Made by a program: the position numbers and the translations under genes. Under the pieces are notes generated by a model. That model saw only the letters and a list, made by a program, of their open reading frames with translations. It did no database searches and was not told where the DNA came from. Shown in pieces: positions 7,084-64,000 of a DNA stretch of 64,000 nucleotides. The stretch's first letter is position 1. Every line of letters begins with the position of its first letter. Source of the DNA: Hemileia vastatrix. Lineage: Eukaryota; Basidiomycota; Pucciniomycetes; Pucciniales; Zaghouaniaceae. The stretch lies in the NCBI GenBank assembly GCA_030280995.1, contig JASXTE010000012.1, positions 9,275,001-9,339,000 on the forward strand, read 5' to 3'.

Positions 7084-7344
7084 CACTACACAATATAGGG
7101 GGTGGACTTGCTATCAAGTCCCCAACCTGAAATCAGAAAGAACTCAGATGGAACTCAGACTGAACTCATACTGAACTAAGACTGAAATCTACTTGAACAC
7201 CCACCTAGAACTGTTCTGATGAGTGGTTTTCACCCCTGATTGTATGGCTCCTTTGTCAATAGCTCAATGCGTGTTCAATCTGTGGTGAATTTGAGTCCAA
7301 TGTTGTGGACTTGCTAACAAGTCCGCCCCCCATATTGCGCAGTG
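7084..7344. mobile_element. CACTA-like MITE, 261 bp
   Basis: The element starts CACTACACAATATAGGGGG and ends CCCCCCATATTGCGCAGTG, so the ends are imperfect inverted repeats of about 38 bp. It is flanked by AAA on both sides (7081-7083 and 7345-7347), a 3-bp target duplication. A CACTA start plus a 3-bp duplication fits the CACTA/EnSpm superfamily. No coding capacity. Inside each end lies a near-palindrome (GGACTTGCTAxCAAGTCC), and the body has short tandem repeats of GAACTCAGACT type. The copy at 26336-26596 has exactly the same length. The next stretch, 7345-8069, shows nothing recognisable. Confidence 0.85.
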
Positions 7345-10861: not shown

Positions 10862-11098
10862 CTAAAACTTTCTTCTAATAAACCTTAGTGCCTCCATTCC
10901 ATCACAATCCCCTGATAACTTTTTATCACTGAAATCCTTTAGTTTAGTGTCTTTACAGACATTCCAAAATGATAGTTTAAAATCTTCATGGATGCTCCCT
11001 GATGAAATTTTAACCTCTTCCCAGACACCTTTCACTAGTTTTAACTCTTTGAAGACACTCCCTGATGATAGTTTACCATATTTTTCGACTCTAGTCAT
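10862..11098 (-). pseudogene. Pol tether with tandem hairpin-derived peptide repeats (type-3)
   Basis: An open minus-strand stretch lies between RNase H and integrase. It contains repeated peptides VFKELKL, VWEEVKI, IHEDFKL and VCKDTKL. Each ends in K-L or K-I encoded over a TAAAACT or TAAACT core, and each starts in the 4-6-4 hairpin layout described for the type-2 element, where the peptides read LPHEVKL and LHQEDKL at the same position of Pol. The repeat at 10941-10961 keeps a perfect 4-bp stem (TGTC and GACA) that differs from every stem in the type-2 copies. The tether itself has no known enzymatic role. Confidence 0.6.
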
Positions 11099-53459: not shown

Positions 53460-53763
53460 CAGTGTATGCTAGTATCTAAGTATAATTTAATAATAAATAT
53501 TAATTGTCCTACTAATTATTGTTAAACAATTTAGTGATCAAACCTCAGGGGAAGACTAATAAAATAGTTATTCTCAATATAAACTCACAATACTTGGATT
53601 TTTATGTGTGCTAGTGGTGGAAAATAGATCATTAAAGTATAGTTATAGCTTATATAAAGATAATACCAATTTATAAATGCTTTATAATATATTTATATAT
53701 TATAATAATTGTTTTATAGTGTTTATTTGTTGTGTAGTAAGTAATTGATGTCTAATAACCCGT
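53460..53763. repeat. Dispersed repeat, inverted partner of 5842-6110
   Basis: AACCTCAGGGGAAGACTAATAAAATAG and TGCTAGTGGTGGAAAATAG are complements of sequence near 6000-6075 and 5985. Similarity continues to AATAACCCG next to the LTR start at 53764. The type-2 element therefore inserted at, or next to, the end of this repeat. Confidence 0.75.
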
Positions 53764-54881
53764 TGTGGTAGCCTAAAGTTTAGTACGGCACCTAAATATG
53801 TAAATGGAGTTATTACGGCGTGCAAGATTGGCGTTATTATTTTTTATAAAAAGGGTTTTATTTAATTTATTGGAGTTTAAAATATGAAGAAATTGGTCAC
53901 GAGCGAATGCCTACACAAATACAATTTATTTTACGGAGAAAACTTATTTTTACGGTCTGAAAAATTTATAAGTATCAAGTCAAGTCACTCAAGAACCTTG
54001 GGAAATTTTCCCAGAATTTTTACTATTTTTCTTATATTTTTAAATGAATTTTAAAGTTTTATAGAAATATTTACGTTTTCAAAAATTACTTAACTTTGAT
54101 GAATTTTCACGGGGTAATTAGAGCTGCGCAGACTACAAAAATTAGTTTGGTACGTAAAGGGGAAGTAGCTCTATTATGTGTAATTTTTGTAGATTTTTTA
54201 TTATGGTTTTAAGGTTCTAAATTGAGTCCGGAAGTCCGGACGGACTCCGTACAGACTCCGTTTCGACTCCGTACGGACTCCGTACGGGCTCCGGATTGAC
54301 TCTGGAAGAGCTCTGGAGGGGAAAACTTAGGCACGTGACTAGGAATACTTAAGCGCTTCTCAAACTCGAAATTGAGGGGGGGACACATCATACAGCTTAA
54401 TCTTTAACCACCACGGTCTCATTTTTTATTACTCAACAAATTAAATAAATTGTAATACCCTTATAACTTTATATTTTATATATAACATTTTAAAAATACT
54501 ACTCAACAATTTAAATAACACTTCATATAGGGTATCTTTAGAAAGGTCTTCATCACTGGGACTTGATTATTGCTGTCTCATAAAAATTTAAATTATTATA
54601 AAAACATAAAAGTCAATCTTTTCAGATCTTTCACTGGTACACCTTAATTGTTGTTATCAGTATTTCTTTCCTCAACAGCCACGATCATTTAATCTCAATA
54701 AGCGTTAATTATTTTAGAGTTTCATTATTTTTATCAATCAGATTCAAGTAGATTGGTTAGCTTAGTGATTTAGAATTCCCATTTTGTTATTTTTATTGGA
54801 AGGACAGGGTTTTCAGCTAAATCCACATATCTCCTCCGGATTCTGCTTACAGCAAGGCGACTGTAAGAGTTTACCTTACCA
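53764..54881 (+). repeat. 5' LTR of the type-2 element
   Basis: It begins TGTGGTAGCC and ends TTACCA. It contains a CG-rich run of short repeats (GGACTCCGTAC, AGACTCCGTTTC and similar) at 54215-54310, which has lost its CG sites in the older LTRs at 16.5 and 17.7 kb. A transcription start is expected in this LTR, but I see no clear TATA box. Confidence 0.88.
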
Positions 54882-54885
54882 TAGT

Positions 54886-54902
54886 TGGCGCCCAACATGG
54901 GG
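54886..54902 (+). promoter_or_regulatory. Primer-binding site of the type-2 element
   Basis: TGGCGCCCAACATGGGG lies 4 nt after the LTR end. It begins with TGG, complementary to a tRNA CCA end, and resembles sites that pair with lysine tRNA in other retroelements. The tRNA is inferred. The leader continues to 55058 and shows direct repeats of TAGCCTGCAAGAGGCTT type. Confidence 0.8.
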
Positions 54903-55058
54903 TACGATTTCTCTAGCTTTCTTTAAAGACTTACTTGGATCAAGAACGTTCTTAGCCTGCAAGAGGCTTATTTTCTGGAACTCTAATTGGATTTTTGTTA
55001 TTGGCCTGCAAGAGGCTTGTTATTTTAACGGTTGTTAACGCTTTTCTTATGTTTTGGG

Positions 55059-56240
55059 ATGTCTTCTACTAGTGGAACTGCTGTGTTGGCTGCTGGTGTA
55101 CCTGTTAGGGCATCAGTAAGGATTGTATCTTGGGTTGGGCCCAAGTTTTCTGGAGATGATTTAGAAGGATTTTTACATAGGTATGAAACTGCAGCTGTGA
55201 TTGATGGTGCTTTACCTTTGGATATGGTGAAGCAGATTAGGTTCTTTATTTTGGACAGAGAGGTGGAAAAGGAGGTTATTTCTATGGATGGTTATAAAGA
55301 TCAAGATTGGAGAAAGCTCAAGATGGAAATGGGAAAAAGGTGGCCAAAAGTTTATTCATTGGAGGATCTAAAGGATATAGCTAGGAAATGGGAATCAAAA
55401 GGAGGTGTAACATCTCTGCATCAGTATCATCAGTTTATGGTTGAATTTCAGGTGGTTCTGGATTATTTGTTGGAGTATGAAATTTTATTTCATGATAATG
55501 CATCAAAGTATATTTTTTGGGATGCTATGGGGGAAAAGGTTAAGAAAGATATTTTGATGGTGCTTATTAATGCGAATTTAATGAAGGATCTTCCCGATGG
55601 AGAAACTAGGATTCCTGGTATGGAGGTGCTAAAGAAGGTTATTTTGGAACATCTGGATACTCATAACTCTGTTGATTTGGACTCTGGAGAAGACACTGAG
55701 GTCGCTCAAGAGATAGAAGAGGATGGTTTAAAAGAACTAGTTTCTGGTGAAATTTTGGATTCAGCCATTCCTGAAGATTTTGTCCAGCCTGAAGATATTA
55801 TTTTTGTTGACTCTTCTGTTTGGAAAGAAGAGATTTTTGAAGATGAAGATATTGTTTTCATTAATGACAAAATTTTGGATGATGGGGATAATTTTGTGTT
55901 GAATGATTTGGAATCGGATTTAGAGGATTTTTCGCCTCAGTTTTTCTCTTCAGAAGCAGAGACTGTCTGCAATGAAGATATGGATATGGTGGATTTGTTA
56001 CAATCTCAGGGAGAGATTGTTAAGGAGGATATGGTTTTCCCTGCACTAATAAAGAGTGTAGTGGTATTTGATAATAGAGTGCATAAATTGGATGCACTCA
56101 TATTTTGGAAAAGGGTTGTTTATTTTTTATGTCCAATGGTAGGACAAATTATGGGGGTTTATTTTTGGGTTTTATGGAATCGGTGGATAAGCCCTTGGGG
56201 CAAAATTATGGATTATCTCCAGGGGATATCAAGAATTTAG
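55059..56240 (+). CDS. Gag of the type-2 element, 393 aa, no zinc knuckle
   Basis: The ATG at 55059 (MSSTSGTAVLAAG) is preferred over upstream in-frame codons because copy C has an ATG in the same context (18479). Residues about 30-110 show the Gag pattern W-x-G-P-K-F-S-G-D-D-L-E-G-F-L-H-R-Y, then VKQIRFFI and GYKDQDWRKLKMEMGKRW. A helical capsid-like part follows to about 215 (LDTHNSVDLDSGED), then a long acidic tail and a hydrophobic, Trp-rich C-terminus. I see no C-x2-C-x4-H-x4-C knuckle, which most Ty3/gypsy Gags have, so RNA binding must be by another part. It ends with TAG at 56238, 2 nt before a hairpin, and pol starts 56 nt later in another frame. Confidence 0.88.
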   Translation: MSSTSGTAVLAAGVPVRASVRIVSWVGPKFSGDDLEGFLHRYETAAVIDGALPLDMVKQIRFFILDREVEKEVISMDGYKDQDWRKLKMEMGKRWPKVYSLEDLKDIARKWESKGGVTSLHQYHQFMVEFQVVLDYLLEYEILFHDNASKYIFWDAMGEKVKKDILMVLINANLMKDLPDGETRIPGMEVLKKVILEHLDTHNSVDLDSGEDTEVAQEIEEDGLKELVSGEILDSAIPEDFVQPEDIIFVDSSVWKEEIFEDEDIVFINDKILDDGDNFVLNDLESDLEDFSPQFFSSEAETVCNEDMDMVDLLQSQGEIVKEDMVFPALIKSVVVFDNRVHKLDALIFWKRVVYFLCPMVGQIMGVYFWVLWNRWISPWGKIMDYLQGISRI

Positions 56241-56242
56241 TT

Positions 56243-56263
56243 CCTCCGAAATGAGGATAAACT
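56243..56263 (+). promoter_or_regulatory. Hairpin module at the gag-pol junction
   Basis: CCTC (56243), a 6-nt loop CGAAAT, GAGG, A, then TAAACT. It starts 2 nt after the gag stop and is conserved in copy C (19671-19691) with loop CAAAAT. The site suggests a role in reinitiation or other recoding to express pol, which lies in a different frame. That role is inference. Confidence 0.7.
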
Positions 56264-56610
56264 ACCTAAACTCGGCTGAAATTTTTTTTTATTGTTATGT
56301 CTTCAATTTATTCAGGATTCAAATTATTATGGATGCCCTCATTTTTTGGGGTAGCAGGGGCTGATCACTCTAATGTTGTAATCTCTCCTCAGGATGAGAT
56401 CCCGGATTGCAATAGGTCAGCTCACTTGGAGATAATTCAAGTGGATTCTCAATTATTTTCTGTTAATATTACTTTGGAGTGCAAATATGTTATGGACTTT
56501 TCTATATGTTTATTGGATTTACCCGGTTTTTCTATTAAATTTAAAAATGGTGAAAAAGGCAAAATGGGCCAAATCAGGTTGGATAAAAATTGGAAGGGTA
56601 TGTTTTATGG

Positions 56611-56782
56611 CCTCCAGCAAGAGGTTAAACTGCAATTATCTCCTTCTATTTTGGACCTCCAGCAAGAGGGTAAACTGCAAATATCACATCAAAATACGAT
56701 AAAAAATCTCAGTATAATTAAAACTCAAAAAAATAATTTTTGTGAAAATTCAATTCCGGTCCTCCAGCAAGAGGTTAAACTG
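56611..56782 (+). repeat. Three in-frame hairpin modules in the pol N-terminal region
   Basis: Units at 56611-56632, 56656-56677 and 56761-56782 each read CCTC, CAGCAA, GAGG, one base, TAAACTG, and all encode LQQE-V/G-KL in the pol frame. They sit where a protease would be expected. Copy C keeps damaged versions at 33015 and 33125. Confidence 0.85.
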
Positions 56783-58761
56783 CCGACTTTCTTTACAGGT
56801 GATTTAATGTTGGATAAGGGAAGCAAAGGTGTTGGAAAATCTGTTTATAAATTAGACAAGGGAAAGGAGAAAAGGGTAAAATTTAAAAATAAAATAAAAT
56901 ATTTTTCTAATTTTTCTTATTCCGATTCTGGCGATGAAGAAGATTCATTTGATGAAAGTTTTAATGGCGATACAAAAGAAAATCTTTTACCTCAAGTTTA
57001 TTTAGATGTGGACGCAGCCAAATATAAGAAGGTAGCAAATAAAGTTCGACCTATTAATGAACCGCTACCTGCTGAATTAAATCCACCTTTGAGAAGACCA
57101 AGGTTATCAAGAGATCCTTATGAAATTCCCTTGCTAAAGAATCCGCCTGAATTTTCTGAGACGTCAAGAATCACTTTTGAGAGACTGGGTGTTGTTAATT
57201 TTGGACCTGATGGTTGGTTGTCTGGAGAAGAGAAGAAGTTGTTGTTGGATGTGATAGTCAAGCGAGAGAAGGCCATTGCTTTTGTAGAAGAGGAGAGGGG
57301 TGTGTTGAAGCATTCCTATGGGGAGCCTTACAAGATTCCTGTGGTATGTCATGAACCGTGGCAGCAGAAACCGATTCCTATTCCAGCTGCATTGAAAGAA
57401 GCTTATATCGAAGTTGTCAGAGAACGGATACGCACTGGACTGTATGAGCAATCAACATCAAGTTATTCTAGTCCGGTATTTTGTATCAAGAAACCGAATG
57501 GCAAGCTTAGAGTTGTTCATGATCTTAGGGAATTAAATAGGGTTACAATAAAGGATGCTGGGATACCGCCTAGTGCTGAGGAGTTTGTGGAAGCGTTTGC
57601 AGGGAGAGTGTGTTATGGTTTGGGAGATATTATGGGTGGATATGATGAGAGAGAGTTACATCTGGACTCAAGACCTCTCACTACATTCGATACACCACTT
57701 GGACGTTTACAGTTAACAAGATTACCTCAAGGAGCAACAAATTCAGTTGCAGTTTATCAAGCTCAGATGGCTTGGATCCTTCAAGATGAAATTCCACAAT
57801 ATGCTGGAATATTTATAGATGATGGAGGAATTAAGGGACCAACAACCGACTATGATAACCAGGTGTTGGAAGAGAATCCCGGGATACGCAAATTCATTTG
57901 GGAGTTTGCAATTACTTTAGAAAGAATCTTGTTTCGAATTGAAGAGGCTGGTTTAACTATTTCAGGTTCAAAATTTTCATGGTGTGTGCCAGCCTTAGAA
58001 ATATTAGGCCATGTGGTATGTAGAGAGGGTAGGATTATGTCCAAGAAGAAAGTTAACAAAATTCAGTCCTGGCCAAGACCCAATAATACGACCGAAGTTA
58101 GAGGGTTTTTAGGCGTTTGCGTATATGTTAGAATGTTTATCAAGGACTTTTCTTCATTGGCAGCTCCATTGAGACGGTTAACGAGAAAGGATGCAGACTG
58201 GGAGTGGGATGAAGAGTGTGAGAAGGCGTTTGTGAAGTTGAAGGAGGTTGTGGGGAAGGATTTAGTCCTGCACAAGTTGGATTATGGAAAAGATGCTGGC
58301 AGAATTTATTTAGCAGTTGATTCAAGTCAGATTGCAGCTGGGGCGGTTTTGTCTCAGATGGATAAAGCTGGTTACATCAGGCCAGTTAGGTATGAATCTG
58401 TAGTATTTACTGAGGTCGAATCAAGATATTCTCAACCAAAATTGGAATTATGTGGTGTGGCGAAAATACTGAAGAAACTTCAGCATATTTTGTGGGGGCA
58501 ACATTTTGAGTTGCAAGTGGATGCGAAATCGTTAATCCAGATGATTAATTCCCCAAGTTTACCGAACGCACCCATGACAAGATGGGTAGCTTTTATTCAA
58601 CATTTTTCGTTTGATTTAGTTCATAAGCCTGGCAAAACTTTTACTATGCCAGATGGTTTATCAAGGAGACCACCCACTGAAGAAGATTCGGACTCAGAAG
58701 AGTTTGATGAAGATATACCTATTATCAAAGCCAGCACTAAAGGAGCTGAAGACTTTCCATA

Positions 58762-58841
58762 CCTCCCCCATGAGGTTAAACTGGCAGGACTATTGTGTTT
58801 AGATTATGATGATGATGACCTCCACCAAGAGGATAAACTGG
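58762..58841 (+). repeat. Two in-frame hairpin modules in the pol tether
   Basis: 58762-58784 has CCTC, CCCCAT, GAGG, T, TAAACTGG. 58819-58841 has CCTC, CACCAA, GAGG, A, TAAACTGG. They encode LPHEVKL and LHQEDKL. Copy C has damaged counterparts at about 35148 and 35200, and the type-3 element has a diverged set at 10862-11098. Confidence 0.85.
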
Positions 58842-60474
58842 AAAATAGTTTTTATGTTAAAAAAGGTGTTGAAAAAGGTGTAGATAAATTCGGCAGAGAG
58901 GAGGTAGAAGAAGATGTGGTGTATGTAGAGGAAGATGGATTGGTAGTGTGGGATAGTAGTAAATTAAGGAATGGTGTATATGTTGGAGAATTAGAGAATT
59001 TAAATAAAAAGGTGGATAAAGAGAAAGAGGTATTTTTGAATACGGTTTTCGAAGGATCCAAAGGTTCAGAAGAAAAACGTCGACATAGCTCGATTAAAAA
59101 TTTATTTAGGGGTCAACGATTATTGGCTCATTCATGTGCAGGTGATATTGGTGATAGAGAAGTCCCTATTGATGTTATATTATTCGATTTTCAAGATGAA
59201 GTCTGGGGTCAGACTGGTTTTTATTTTTTGTTAGTCAAATATTTGTTGACTTTAGAGAGGCCAGAAGATTGTGAAGACAATGAATGGGTGGCTATCAAGA
59301 GGAAGTCATCTACGTTTTACCTATCTGGTCGACGTTTAATGAGGAGGAGGTATCCAAATCCTCAAGTAGTTATAACTCAACAGAAGGGGCAAGAATTAGT
59401 TTTGAAATCACTGCATGAAGATCTCAGGCATAGAGGTGTTGGAGAAACATTTAGAAGAATTTCTGATTGATTTTGGTGGCCTGGCATGAAGATGGCTGTT
59501 AAACAGTGGGTTCAGTCATGCAAAGAATGTCAAAGACAAAGTTATTTAAGGCCAAAAGAACCTGGACGCGCGACCGGTGAATATACGCTCTTTGGAAGAG
59601 TTAGTTTAGATGCCGTTCATATAAAAGAGGGACGGTATAAATATTTAATTGTGGCCAGAGATGATTTATCTGGTTGGGTAGAGGCAGCGCCTCTTATTAA
59701 TTTAACTGCCAAAAATGTGGCAGAATTTTTTTTGAATAATTGGGTATATAGGTATGGGGTGATGAAGTTGGTAACGGTAGATGGAGGTCCTGAATTTGGG
59801 ACAGAGTTTAAAGAGGCCGTATTGAAAGTTGGATCAAAGGTTAGGGTAGCAACCCCATATTATCCTGAAGCTGAAGGCATGGTTGAAAGAGGGCATCAAG
59901 TTATTAAGGATGCTTTAGTTAAAATGTGTGGGACAAGTGCCGAAAAGTGGAGGCACTATTTACCTTTAGTTTTATTTTCTGATCAAATCACTGCCAAAAG
60001 GACGACCGGATTTTCACCTTATGAACTTGTTTTTGGACAGAAAGCAGTTTTACCGGTTGATTTAGAAGCTGAATCATATCTTGGAGTTGACTGGGGCACA
60101 GTCAAAACTACTGAAGAATTATTGTGTGCAAGAATGATGCAGCTAGAAAAGAAAGAAGAATATTTAGAAAAGGCATATTCGCGGATGATGAAGATCCGAA
60201 ATCAATCAGTCAGATATTGGGATGAGCGGTTGGCACATCGATTAAGGAAACCTTTGAACCCAGGAGATATGGTCCTGGTGTATAATAGGAGTTTGGAAAG
60301 TCAGTGGGGAAAGATGTTTGCAGATAGGTGGAATGGACCGTATAAAATCAAGGAGCAAGTTTCCGGCGGTTCATATGTGCTAGAAGAGTTGGATGGAGTA
60401 GTATTAAAGAAGAGGGTAGCAGCCGATCAAGTGAAAAGGTTCTATCCTAGAGGCACCAGGAGTGCCGAAGTCTT

Positions 60475-60690
60475 CCTCCGCAATGAGGATAAACTATGAA
60501 TTTTCTTAAATTTTATCAACTCCGAAATGAGGATAAACTAAAATTTTAATGACTTTTATTAAATTTATTCCTCCGCAATGAGGATAAACTATGACATTTA
60601 TGAAATTTTATGGACGAACTCCAAAATGAGGATAAACTACAATTTTAATGACTTTTATTAAATTTATTCCTCCGCAACGAGTATAAACTA
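60475..60690 (+). repeat. Hairpin modules at the pol end and just after it
   Basis: Units lie at 60475 (CCTC/GAGG, inside the last codons, encoding LRNEDKL), 60519 (ACTC/GAGG), 60570 (CCTC/GAGG), 60618 (ACTC/GAGG) and 60669 (CCTC/GAGT). Each is followed by one base and TAAACT. The spacing is about 45-52 bp, with a shared linker ATTTTAATGACTTTTATTAA in two of them. A GGCAC/GTGCC hairpin at 60452-60466 precedes them and keeps its stem in the copy at 38402. Confidence 0.85.
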
Positions 60691-60859
60691 TCTTCTTATT
60701 TTTATCAAAAATACTTTACTATCGTTACACTGCATATGGGCAACAAAACTGTGATGAAACATAACGAAATACGAGAAAACCTTCATTGAAAATTTTCAAA
60801 ATTTAAAATTCTTAAAATATGGGTGAAGATAGTGTTGGAAAAATTTTAAAATTTATTGG

Positions 60860-61365
60860 AAGAAGTGTTCACAGGGGAACCTTCTTAATTAAATATTGGC
60901 AAGTGTGGGGGTAATTGATGGGCTGGCTGCTCTATACACAATTACCCCATAATGTTCGTTTCCAAAATTTTCCCTGTTTCTAGTTGAATCCTGGCTTTGT
61001 CTTTTAATTTTAGGAAGTCCACTAAGACTATAAACTGGAACGAATCAAGAGACACCGCTCTCAACGCCGGATTCAAGATTCTTTTATTTTATTTTGTTTT
61101 TGATTTTTTATATGTTAGATTGTGATTTCTTTTCTTTAATATATATTATGAATTATTGTAAAGGTGATGCTCACTGGTGGTCTCAAATCATTTTTATAAA
61201 TTGGAGGGAGCCCACCCAGTGATCATCATTATAAAAATTATCTTCTAAAAACTTTCATTTATTTTCTTTTCTTTTCAATTTCTCAAAATTGTGTAACCAC
61301 ATCAAGTTGCACTTGGATGTGGGTATGATGTCGAGGGTACGGCTCATCAAATGGCCGGGGGGCAT
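60860..61365 (+). other. Conserved, structured 3' module of type-2 elements
   Basis: It is non-coding but conserved in three copies (also 37080-37612 and 38700-39255). Inverted arms visible are GGGGTAATTG (60908) with CAATTACCCC (60940), TCACTGGTGG with CCACCCAGTGA (61169 and 61211), and CACATCAAG with CTTGGATGTG (61293). A hairpin module AGTC, CACTAA, GACT, A, TAAACTGG lies at 61016-61038. Possible roles are 3' end processing, packaging or translation control (inference). 60691-60859 shows nothing else. Confidence 0.75.
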
Positions 61366-61377
61366 CTTTTAAAATTT

Positions 61378-61380
<3 letters not shown>

Positions 61381-61410
<30 letters not shown>

Positions 61411-61742
61411 TTTATTACTTTTTTATTTTTCTTTTCACATTCGTTTATCTTTCTTTAAAAATTAAATTTTAACTTTTATTTCAAAACTATCTTTTTTTTT
61501 AAAAAAAAAAAATTATTAAAATTAAAAAAAAATAAATAAATAAAAAAAAAAAATTTTATTACTTTTTTATTTTTCTTTTCACATTCGTTTATCTTTCTTT
61601 AAAAATTAAATTTTAACTTTTATTTCAAAACTATCTTTTTTTTAAAAAAAAAAAATTATTAAAATTAAAAAAAAATAAATAAATAAAAAAAAAAAAAAAA
61701 ATCTTTTATTTTAAATGGTAAAAAAAAAATAATAATAATAAT

Positions 61743-61773
<31 letters not shown>

Positions 61774-61800
61774 TAAAAATAAGAAATAAATAATAAAAGG
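61381..61800. repeat. Low-complexity A/T region with a 144-bp tandem duplication
   Basis: A poly-A run is followed by a unit (TTTATTACTTTTTTATTTTTC...CACATTCGTTTATC...) that starts at 61411 and again at 61555. An A-rich (AATAAAAATA)n tract runs to 61800. Such sequence is error-prone in assembly. Confidence 0.85.
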
Positions 61801-61883
61801 TATTTTAGTTTTAGGTAGTTTAGATGTTTATATTTTATTTTTCAAACATTATTCAAGAAAGCTACATACCAGGAAGAACACCA

Positions 61884-62897
61884 TCAAGGGTTGTTATCTT
61901 TTGAAGAATCGAAATTAGAAAATTTAGAAGGACCTTGATTGATTTCCTGGGATTCGAATCTTATTTCACGGTCACGATAGTGTTGAAGCCAGTTGGCTAT
62001 TTTGAAAAGGTCTCTTAACAGTTGCTCTCTCATCCAAGATTCTGATCTATCAGAGGGCGGGTATCGTTGGAAATAAGCGATAAGCTTATTAAAATTAGCA
62101 AAAAGCTTTTCAGACACTAGGTGAATTGGAACTCTAGGGAAGCTTGGATTAGGTTCTGGTAGTTCATAAGCAGAATATGAAATTTGAGAACCGGTGGACG
62201 CTTATCAAATTAAAATATCAGCAAATTAAAACCTGAAGATTAAGAAAATAAAAAGAGACAACTAACCTGTGTCAACACTATCATGATCATAGATAAATGG
62301 CTTACTTGGTAATGGAGTGGGATTTTTTATGTTTAGAAAAGGATTTTTTATTTTTGATAGATGAGGAGGACTGGTGTTGGATTTGGTGTTTGAAGTAGAT
62401 GTTCTGGGCCTTTTGGATGATACAAGAGAAGATGAAGACTGCTGGCTATTATAGGACATTTTGTGCTTCAAGATGTTGGAAGAAGGAGAAGAATTGTTAG
62501 AAGGTTGAAGCATGGCCTTGGGAGCAGCAAGAGTTCTTGGGGGACTAGCAGCAAGTCTAGATTGGAGAGAAGGACCCAGAGGATTAGGTGATGGAGAAAG
62601 ATTTAAATAGGCTGATGGAGAAAAAGGGATGGGATCTTTAGAGGTTGATGGAATAGGGGGTGGAGTAGAAGGTGAAGAAGAAGGAAGAGGTTTGCAGAAG
62701 GTGGCGAAGCTAGTAGCAGTGATGGGGAAAGAACCACAGTTCAAGCCAGAACATTTTCTTTTCTTCTCATAGCAGGATAAACAGGCCCTGTTATAAGTGT
62801 GCTTTTGCCAGTTAAAAGAGAAGATACATTCCCTATGGGTGAAGGCACAGTATTTGCAAGATTGATCAGCTGAAGCAATGAAGTCAGAAGGTTTCAT
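61884..62897 (-). CDS. Antisense two-exon gene in the type-2 3' region, Cys-rich protein
   Basis: Exon 1 runs from ATG 62897 to 62267. Intron 62201-62266 (66 nt; donor GTTAGT, acceptor ATAAG, CTGAT branch-like site). Exon 2 runs from 62200 to the TGA at 61884. The splice keeps the frame (VDTA-STGSQISYSAYELPE). The N-terminus has two Cys clusters, CKYCAFTHREC and CLSCYEKKRKC, the second like half of a fungal Zn2Cys6 domain. A Ser/Pro-rich middle with a possible nuclear signal (SSKRPR) follows, then an exon-2 helical region (LLRDLFKIANWLQHYRD). A relic of exon 2 at 37951 supports it as a family trait. The function is unknown; a zinc-binding, nucleic-acid-binding regulator is a guess. Confidence 0.65.
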
Positions 62898-62991
62898 CTT
62901 GTTAGGAGATATTTTTTTGAAGAAGAAAACTTGAAACTAGGATGAAGAAAGCTGGTGGCAAAATCTGGGTTCAAGGATAGAGAAGTTGTTA

Positions 62992-63459
62992 GGTCCACCA
63001 AGACCTTAAACTGGACTATTATCAAGTGTTGGGTCCACCATGACCTTAAACTGGATTTCTTATCGATTAAATGTTTGGTCCACCATGACTTTAAACTGGT
63101 AGTTCATTCATTGTTTAGTCCACTATGACTTTAAACTAGAAAATTAATATCTGCAGGATAATTCAACATTCATTGGACCACTATGGCCTTATACTGGATT
63201 ACTTGTCGATCAAATGTTTGGTCCACTATGACATTAAACTGGATTATCAAATTTATTCAATCTTTGGTCAAGCCTAGGCCTTAATTAGGAATATTTCAAG
63301 TTATTTATGCACCTAAACGATCTTTGGTCCACCAAGACCATAAACTGGCAATCGATTATATGTTTGGTCCACCAAGACTTTAAACTGGAATGTCAATCTT
63401 GTTTGGATAACTCAATTCAATCTTTTAATTTATCACTGTCCACTAAGACTCTAAACTGG
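62992..63459 (+). repeat. Hairpin-TAAACTGG array upstream of the antisense gene
   Basis: Ten or so units at mostly 40-58 bp spacing. GGTC/GACC perfect at 62992, 63032 and 63326; GGTC/GACT (one G-T pair) at 63077 and 63366; AGTC/GACT perfect at 63117. Weakened units are at 63175, 63220, 63266 and 63437. Loops are CACCAA, CACCAT, CACTAT or CACTAA. All but the damaged ones end in TAAACTGG. The array is non-coding in either strand and lies 95 bp upstream of the antisense ATG. Confidence 0.9.
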
Positions 63460-64000
63460 TTATTCAATTATTTCTGGAATTGGGTGCTGATAGCTTTAGG
63501 AGGTTAAAACTTTAGGTGGTGATGATGCGAAAGAAAGCATAATGGTTAATTAGGTAAAATTTGTGGCGCTTTAACATGGTCTAAAGTTAAAATTATTATT
63601 GGAAGCCTGGCAAAAGTATTTTATGGGTTTGCTGTATAGCAAAGTTTGAAAATTGTGATGAAGGAATCAGAAGTTAGGATGGTAGTTGGATTTTAGGGAA
63701 TGATTTTTTTTAGTGCCTCATAGTTAGGCCCTTTTTTTTTGGTGTGAAGCTTGAAGGACCTTATGGCGAGATTGGAATCATAGAATTCGGCTCAGTGGGG
63801 GGCCCTATGAGGTTGGAATCAGGAGTATTCGGCTCATAGGAAGATCCACTCTCTCAATGCTGTGACAAGAAGGAAGACTGGTATATGGGAGTCTGAAGGG
63901 ATTCAAACCTTGCTCTCAGTAGTGGAATCATCACAAGATTTATATTATTTTATTTTATGTTATATCAAGCCAGAGAAGAAAGAAAACATCATTTATGTTG
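63460..64000 (+). other. Terminal 3' segment of the type-2 element
   Basis: It is non-coding. GTGAAGCTTGAAGGACCTTATGG (63746 onward) and the following 90 bp match 40312-40410 of the older copy, so this is internal sequence close to the 3' LTR. The LTR itself would lie right of the window. No gene seen. Confidence 0.65.

What the first reader, a model, noticed from the sequence alone, without database searches (positions are those of the whole stretch)
56243..63459. A repeated hairpin module with covarying stem and fixed TAAACTGG tail
At least 15 clear units in the complete type-2 element share the layout 4-nt stem, 6-nt loop, complementary stem, one free base, TAAACTGG. Loop and tail are nearly constant while the stem changes in step on both sides: CCTC/GAGG, GGTC/GACC, AGTC/GACT, and TGTC/GACA in the type-3 relative (10941-10961). 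Some units keep a G-T pair, which pairs in RNA but not well in DNA. Paired change is the classic sign that the folded form matters. I know of no described retrotransposon element with this layout. Candidate roles are RNA binding by Gag (which lacks a zinc knuckle), packaging, translation control, or a mobile mini-hairpin spreading within the element.
Basis: partly seen in the sequence, partly recalled or inferred. Interest (0 to 1): 0.9.

Follow-up and report, generated by a model that had tools for sequence, protein, structure and literature searches.

The report
Repeated RNA mini-pseudoknots in a retrotransposon
A jumping element of a fungal genome carries about twenty copies of a 23-letter module whose letters change in matched pairs, as expected if each copy folds as RNA into a tiny knot, and the same module occurs more than 100,000 times in that genome.

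Summary
The element (Ty3/gypsy type, about 53764 to beyond 64000) holds 21 units that I list, on the gag-pol strand; 15 have a complete 4-bp stem, and shuffles of the element give a mean of 0.25, maximum 3. The fixed part of the tail is TAAAC(T); only 10 of 21 end in TAAACTGG. Genome-wide there are 46,760 CCTC/GAGG units and 69,257 GTC/GAC units, against 1 and 0 for the reversed patterns.

Loop bases 3-5 can pair with tail bases 6-8 (CCA/TGG, GCA/TGC, TCA/TGA, CTA/TAG, CAA/TTG). In an all-column scan this ranks fourth, behind three column pairs of the stem region. Pairing exceeds shuffles made within class and family. The unit is best read as a minimal H-type RNA pseudoknot: S1 4 bp, L1 2 nt, S2 3 bp, 1 nt, A-rich L3 6 nt. 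This favours folded RNA over a duplex protein site or a peptide motif.

Limits: the stem's C-G/G-C switch is largely one old split; G.U is not preferred over A.C; units after integrase lack S2; the partner is unknown. Gag is acidic without a zinc knuckle, so Gag-driven packaging is only a guess.

The parts
53764..54883 (+). 5' LTR (approximate ends); its partner lies beyond the window at L009 about 868-1983
   Evidence: read by eye: TGTGGTAGCC... start and shared sequence to ...CTTACCATA; no unit of the repeat lies inside it
54884..54905 (+). primer-binding-site-like stretch GTTGGCGCCCAAC... just after the LTR
   Evidence: read; the assignment is from general knowledge
55032..56240 (+). gag ORF (402 aa), no CCHC, acidic; called gag by its place and by similarity to the same region of other loci, no Pfam match
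56297..59470 (+). pol ORF (RT, RNase H), ends at an in-frame TGA
59486..60499 (+). integrase ORF; its last seven codons are the unit at 60475 (LRNEDKL)
56243..56265 (+). unit after the gag stop: CCTC/GAGG, S1 only, no S2
56611..56633 (+). gag-pol spacer unit 1, in pol frame (LQQEVKL), S1 and S2 complete
56656..56678 (+). gag-pol spacer unit 2, S1 and S2 complete
56761..56783 (+). gag-pol spacer unit 3, S1 and S2 complete
58762..58784 (+). RNase H-integrase linker unit 1 (LPHEVKL), S1 and S2 complete
58819..58841 (+). RNase H-integrase linker unit 2 (LHQEDKL), S1 and S2 complete
60475..60691 (+). tandem array of five post-integrase units (60475, 60519, 60570, 60618, 60669); S1 complete in 2 of 5, S2 in 0 of 5
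61016..61038 (+). unit AGTC/GACT, S2 CTA/TGG with one U.G
62992..63459 (+). distal array of nine units (62992, 63032, 63077, 63117, 63175, 63220, 63326, 63366, 63437); S2 complete in 9 of 9 (U.G allowed), S1 in 6 of 9
62262..62897 (-). antisense ORF, 211 aa, C-x2-C-x6-C ... C-x2-C-x6-C, basic; lies between the post-integrase and the distal arrays
   Evidence: no Pfam match, no homologue at E<=0.001
10939..10961 (-). unit TGTC/GACA in the type-3 relative

Best explanation
The unit is a cis-acting RNA module of the element's genomic transcript that folds as a minimal H-type pseudoknot: S1 of 4 bp (5' NNTC with GANN), a 2-nt L1, S2 of 3 bp between loop bases 3-5 and tail bases 6-8, one junction base, and a 6-nt A-rich L3 (N-TAAAC) crossing S1. 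Shown: the sequence layout, its repetition at six places of the element on one strand only, nucleotide-level constraint inside the ORF, and paired changes in both helices. Inferred: that it folds so in the cell, that a protein recognises the fold (the fixed TAAAC loop plus shape, while stem letters are free to vary), and that many copies act together by avidity on the genomic RNA. I rate selective assembly or packaging of the genomic RNA at about 0.3, and translation or stability control by tandem 3' pseudoknots at about 0.25; the rest is open. The post-integrase units are a variant or degenerate subclass without S2.
For: S1: on alignment A1 (85 distinct strings found by loop and tail alone, about six of them chance, plus 4 added by hand) 87.9% of cells pair against 66.8% shuffled, score 0.436 against 0.137, 0 of 500; slid versions pair in at most 48.9%. 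All-column scan of 93 distinct strings chosen by TC, GA and TAAAC alone, keeping column pairs with at least 55% pairing: the largest excesses over shuffling are 2-14, 2-13, 1-14 and 7-23. S1 plus S2: 83.9% of cells pair against 65.6%, 0 of 500; S2 alone 78.7% against 63.8%, 0 of 500 (pair 9-21 is fixed in A1 by the way it was collected). Shuffling only within class and family: 7-23 is Watson-Crick in 64 of 93, expected 48.6, 0 of 4000 shuffles; 8-22 in 50 of 93, expected 42.3, p 0.0015; complete S2 in 48 of 93, expected 36.4, 0 of 5000. All four Watson-Crick types occur at 7-23, and 9-21 is A-T in 88 of 93. Later listings not used to find S2: in the 100 GTC-type rows, whose pattern allowed only C/T in the loop and A/G in the tail, loop T goes with tail A in 16 of 16 and loop C with tail G in 72 of 84 (Fisher p 2e-11 by rows, 0.0013 by 28 distinct strings). 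In the 100 CTC-type rows, read by eye, G goes with C and C with G without exception. Separate paired change at the matching linker site: CCTC/GAGG in family A, TCTC/GAGA in family D. Nucleotide constraint in the ORF, with units picked by peptide pattern only: of 35 distinct DNA strings, codon 1 ends in C in 33 (29 of 247 Leu/Ile/Val codons in the window's pol), codon 5 ends in T in 31 while its second base takes all four letters, codon 6 is AAA in 35. The two linker units agree at 18-22 of 22 bases among families A, B and D, while their 45-nt flanks are near the unrelated level of 51% between A or B and D; some A-B left flanks reach 30 of 45 (the sites were located by the unit itself). In the window's element units are found on the gag-pol strand only; its 5' LTR holds none.
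Against: S2 was first noticed by eye on the same alignment, and the listings that confirm it are related by descent. No wobble preference: over the two variable S2 pairs G.U plus U.G is 15 and A.C plus C.A is 17, in 93 strings (8-22: U.G 11 to C.A 4; 7-23: 4 to 13, which also has one extra A.T-type minority state); the off-state at 7-23 is C.A in 12 rows and U.G in none; stem pairs 2-4 show 0 to 8, genome-wide pair 2 428 to 496. Two of five measures for S2 alone do not beat shuffles, and the number of extra pair types for S1 is higher at slide +2, 13 against 12. Within class and family the outer stem pair is weak: Watson-Crick 67 of 93, expected 62.4, p 0.0375; with G-U 74, expected 72.8, p 0.30. 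In the CTC class alone it is absent, 30 of 42, expected 28.8. A hand-built table of 46 family-by-site states gives p 0.002 stratified by class and 0.13 by family and class. Pair 2 carries no information within a class. Six of 21 window units lack S2. Type-3 linker units keep the peptide pattern better than the stem. The distal array does not fold better than shuffles (z +1.17), and the reverse complement of a unit folds about as well; these programs ignore pseudoknots.
Confidence: 0.5

Rival explanations
1. The unit is a double-stranded DNA site with dyad symmetry, bound by a dimeric protein, for example a regulator from the antisense C6-type ORF; many sites make an enhancer, an insulator or an autoregulatory array.
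For: Stem covariation is also what a dimer site gives, and G.U is not preferred over A.C. An antisense ORF with two C-x2-C-x6-C motifs lies near the arrays in families A and B. The LTR has its own palindromic array at 54235-54306.
Against: Loop-tail complementarity in S2 has no role in a dyad site. In the window's element the units are on one strand and outside the 5' LTR. The half-sites differ between classes while TAAAC is the fixed part.
Confidence: 0.16
2. The unit is neutral or selfish: a mini-hairpin that multiplies inside the element by slippage, recombination and template switching during reverse transcription, without benefit to the element.
For: Copy number varies between copies: 1 to 9 post-integrase CCTC-type hits in a cluster in the listing, and 3 to 6 gag-pol spacer units in family A loci. 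Tandem period of 51 bp, and of 99 bp for the pair, in the post-integrase array, 45 bp in the distal one.
Against: Units stay nearly identical across families while flanks diverge, and loop and tail change together within class and family. Both suggest selection on the fold, unless the fold itself is what spreads.
Confidence: 0.22
3. The unit is a peptide motif, Leu-x-x-Glu-x-Lys-Leu, at domain borders of the polyprotein (processing or docking), and the nucleotide pattern is its shadow.
For: Coding units are in frame between gag and RT, between RNase H and IN, and at the IN C-terminus. Type-3 linkers keep V/I-x-x-E/D-x-K-L/I.
Against: 15 of 21 units of the element lie outside the ORFs. In units picked by peptide alone, synonymous positions are nearly fixed while amino acid 5 varies. 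Only 3 of the 120 listed relatives (30-78% identical) hold even two matches to the peptide, at scattered places.
Confidence: 0.08

Closest known systems
Minimal H-type pseudoknots with short stems and an A-rich third loop, as in some viral frameshift signals (recalled, no call)
   Same: S1 about 4 bp, L1 2 nt, S2 3 bp, short A-rich loop across S1 (layout)
   Different: Here about 20 copies per element, inside ORFs without a frame change and in a long 3' region; no slippery site was tested
Tobamovirus upstream pseudoknot domain in the 3' UTR (PMC4683447: only the start of the abstract seen)
   Same: Pseudoknots in the 3' non-coding part of an RNA genome, said there to play a role in replication and translation
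   Different: A retrotransposon, near-identical short units, also within coding linkers; no homology claimed
Short stem-loop packaging signals proposed for STNV-1 (PMC6475782: passages seen)
   Same: Short stem-loops with a fixed loop motif, overlapping coding sequence
   Different: There the motif is degenerate, and that paper's data weigh against it as a true signal in vivo
Ty1 Gag and Ty1 RNA pseudoknot (PMC8396678: passages seen)
   Same: An LTR element whose Gag differs in organisation from retroviral Gag and prefers a pseudoknot in its genomic RNA in vitro
   Different: One long-range pseudoknot at the 5' end, not an array of local ones
Drosophila gypsy insulator with repeated Su(Hw) sites (recalled; papers listed, not read)
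   Same: Array of a short repeated site inside a Ty3/gypsy element
   Different: A DNA-protein site, no loop-tail pairing known to me

Membership tests
H-type RNA pseudoknot | Loop of a hairpin can pair with bases downstream of its stem | tested here: met
   Columns 7-9 with 21-23; complete in 15 of 21 window units against 8 of 182 control TAAAC sites; not met in the 6 gag-end and post-integrase units
H-type RNA pseudoknot | Fold forms in solution or in the cell | not testable with these tools
   needs probing; the folding programs used do not model pseudoknots
Ty3/gypsy LTR retrotransposon | RT, RNase H and integrase in that order, between LTRs | tested here: met
   Pfam RVT_1, RT_RNaseH and rve (rve 32.2 bits, just under its cut-off 32.6); LTRs by eye
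Ty3/gypsy LTR retrotransposon | Gag CCHC knuckle and aspartic protease motif | tested here: not met
   Neither regular expression matched in six frames of 53761-64000; of 18 relatives printed, 3 have CCHC and 6 the protease motif, several being partial. Some Ty3/gypsy elements lack the knuckle (recalled)
Tobamovirus-type tandem 3' pseudoknot domain | Several consecutive pseudoknots in a 3' non-coding region | tested here: inconclusive
   Layout met on sequence alone (62992-63459); no function tested, no homology
-1 frameshift signal | Slippery heptamer upstream and an overlapping -1 frame | not tested
   Not scanned for; the linker units are inside one open frame
DNA dyad site (insulator type) | Recognition by a duplex-binding protein | not testable with these tools
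   no binding data; loop-tail pairing is unexplained by it
Known Rfam family | Match to a covariance model | tested here: not met
   No match over the units at E<=1 in 53700-64000; the two weak matches lie at 54228-54295

The most novel reading that the evidence does not exclude
A Ty3/gypsy lineage without a Gag zinc knuckle marks its genomic RNA with about twenty copies of one tiny pseudoknot, spread through ORF linkers and the 3' region; they act together as the assembly code of the particle and are read by a still unknown protein of the element, such as the basic patch of Pol 177-201 or the antisense C6 protein.
Probability: 0.15. Interest if true: 0.88.

Novelty: new variant of a known kind. 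Interest (0 to 1): 0.7.

Why it matters
If the fold is real, this is a repeated RNA structure small enough to write as 23 letters, kept by paired change in two helices, present over 116,000 times in one genome, and sitting both in coding linkers and in non-coding arrays of one element. It gives a direct handle on how retroelement RNA is recognised when the usual zinc knuckle is absent, and a large natural mutant library for pseudoknot rules.

Tried and rejected
G.U against A.C as a genome-wide test of RNA pairing: GGTC..GACT 5,370 against AGTC..GACC 179 looked decisive, but the listing shows mostly the same two array positions in copy after copy, so I dropped it. CTC class, with reversed control in brackets: wild type 46,760 (1), U.G at pair 1 1,634 (1, roughly half of the listed rows one string by eye), C.A 643 (1), paired double 58 (4) against 22.5 expected from the singles. 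Non-partner double 31 (10) against 17.3 expected, with CCTC..GAAG 496 (5). So there is a modest excess of paired doubles, some of it from a few families; age differences between copies inflate both.

The coding-unit table (48 units chosen by hand, four L029 spacer units left out) showed fixed codon-1 and codon-5 third bases in 28 of 28, but the units had been found by those very bases, so I replaced it by the peptide-picked count. Extension of the stem beyond 4 bp: counted by eye in the window units, no excess; columns 0-15 are not among the 16 pairs printed. RNA folding of the distal array: no excess stability on either strand. Relatives in viral contigs: 12 and 27 contigs with one match each, taken as chance and not examined. 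Homologues of the antisense ORF: none at E<=0.001. Literature: searches listed nothing that describes such units; only their listings were seen.

Rows dropped: and later counts leave out L004, L005, L007 and L008, which overlap L003 and L006. One search kept 83 of 89 rows. Searches used 93 of 194 distinct strings, those with a perfect anchor. The 46 states were listed by hand and leave out the decayed unit at 63175.
Full report
What is there. The window lies in a 747.6 Mb assembly (G000, 791 contigs). The finding sits in a Ty3/gypsy-type element that starts at about 53764 and ends about 2 kb beyond the window. It has a gag ORF 55032-56240, a pol ORF 56297-59470 with RT and RNase H, an integrase ORF 59486-60499, a long 3' region, and two antisense ORFs with a pair of C-x2-C-x6-C motifs (window 62897-62262, and L009 from about 740 downward). 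Its closest named protein relatives come from Puccinia, Austropuccinia and Phenoliferia (and two records labelled as a bacterial MAG), so the host is probably a rust fungus or close to one; no tool named it.

The observation. I list twenty-one units of 23 bases in the element: one after the gag stop, three in the gag-pol spacer, two in the RNase H-integrase linker, five after integrase, one at 61016 and nine at 62992-63459. Fifteen have a complete 4-bp stem; 500 shuffles of the element give a mean of 0.25 and a maximum of 3. A loose scan of both strands finds units on the gag-pol strand only (20 and 0). TAAACT is present in 20 of 21, TAAACTGG in 10 of 21. The five units inside pol are in frame and read L-x-x-E-x-K-L; the sixth coding unit ends integrase.

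How widespread. Exact patterns count 46,760 CCTC/GAGG units with TAAACT and 69,257 GTC/GAC units, with 1 and 0 hits for the reversed patterns. Units occur in several families of one clade, which I call A (window element, L001, L003, L006, L014, L019, L029), B (L002, L012, L022, L027, L030-L033), C (window 28-42 kb), D (L073), E (L074) and type 3 (window 9-13 kb, minus strand). More distant gypsy elements, about 25-31% identical to this pol, at window 1.8-4.7 kb and 41.6-47.8 kb and in L011, L015, L025 and L028, showed none in the same scan. Of the 120 relatives listed only three had even two matches to the peptide form. Single matches in 12 and 27 viral contigs look like chance.

Stem pairing. 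On 89 distinct strings 87.9% of stem cells pair, against 66.8% in shuffles (0 of 500 as high) and at most 48.9% when the 3' arm is slid. Much of this is the split into a CTC and a GTC class. Within the GTC class the outer pair is still Watson-Crick in 32 of 40, expected 23.5 (0 of 5000); within the CTC class there is no signal, 30 of 42, expected 28.8. Family D shows a separate paired change at the matching linker site, TCTC/GAGA in two of three units and a U.G state in the third. Paired doubles at pair 1 exceed expectation genome-wide (58, of which about 4 background, against 22.5); non-partner doubles exceed it less (31, about 10 background, against 17.3).

The second helix. Reading loops beside tails suggested that loop bases 3-5 complement tail bases 6-8. 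A scan of column pairs on 93 distinct strings, picked without using those columns, put 7-23 fourth, after 2-14, 2-13 and 1-14. With shuffling confined to class and family, 7-23 is Watson-Crick in 64 of 93, expected 48.6, and 8-22 in 50 of 93, expected 42.3; complete S2 in 48 of 93, expected 36.4, 0 of 5000. All four Watson-Crick types occur at 7-23. In later genome listings loop T went with tail A in 16 of 16 and loop C with tail G in 72 of 84 GTC-type rows, and the 100 CTC-type rows showed no G.G or C.C when read by eye; both lists are dominated by a few sites copied many times. In the window, S2 is complete in 15 of 21 units and fails in the gag-end unit and the five post-integrase units; among TAAAC sites without the TC/GA core it is complete in 8 of 182. 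Wobble does not help the case: over the two variable S2 pairs G.U and U.G total 15, A.C and C.A 17.

What constrains the coding units. Picked by peptide alone from 24 linker and spacer stretches, 35 distinct DNA strings have codon 1 ending in C in 33, against 29 of 247 such codons in the window's pol, and codon 5 ending in T in 31, against 140 of 266 Val, Gly, Asp and Ala codons, while the second base of codon 5 takes all four letters. The two linker units keep 18-22 of 22 bases among A, B and D, with flanks near the unrelated level between A or B and D. This is selection on nucleotides more than on the peptide, with the caveat that strings are related. A peptide signal remains in type 3, where one of four listed linker units has a full stem.

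Mechanism. I read the unit as a minimal H-type pseudoknot in the genomic RNA. Strand, absence from the 5' LTR, nucleotide constraint in ORFs and above all loop-tail pairing favour RNA over a duplex site. What binds it is not known. Gag has no CCHC and is acidic (pI 4.4); basic stretches are at Pol 177-201, at Pol 1001-1025 and in the antisense protein. A multi-copy mark used in assembly, or a translation or stability element like the 3' pseudoknots of tobamoviruses, are the two roles I find likeliest; neither was tested.

Doubts. S2 was found after looking. Copies are related by descent, so p values by rows overstate. There is no wobble preference in stem or S2 apart from pair 1 and 8-22. Secondary-structure folding gives no excess stability. 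A selfish origin by slippage in arrays is plausible for the copy numbers, if less so for the paired changes.

Literature. Listings of searches were seen; passages of PMC6475782 and PMC8396678 were read. Nothing in those listings describes such units. Most subscription papers are not in that library.

Noticed in passing
window 54235-54306: LTR array of an 11-bp palindromic unit (TCCGTACGGAC type); other 11-bp arrays (CTGAACTCAGA) lie at 7127 and 26379. They look like promoter binding sites. A weak Rfam hit there (mir-Ro6-3, 32.7 bits, gathering 79) is likely chance.
   Followed up: no
window 62897-62262 and L009 about 740-320, minus strand: Antisense ORFs with two C-x2-C-x6-C motifs in a Ty3/gypsy element; a similar one in family B (L031 9052, minus), and a + strand match in L015 at 193. 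No Pfam match or homologue found for the first.
   Followed up: partly
window 53761-64000: No CCHC knuckle and no D-S/T/N-G protease motif in six frames, although relatives P0004, P0013 and P0052 (68-71% identical) have both.
   Followed up: partly
window 59468-59470: In-frame TGA between the pol and integrase ORFs of this copy.
   Followed up: no
window 56238-56265: The gag stop is followed at once by a unit whose gag-frame reading (FLRNEDKL) matches the end of integrase (VFLRNEDKL).
   Followed up: no
L019 and L029 against window 61.8-62.9 kb: These family-A copies have AGTC-type units in the stretch where the window's copy has the 211-aa antisense ORF; the C6 motif of that ORF was found only in the window's copy among the loci scanned.
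   Followed up: no
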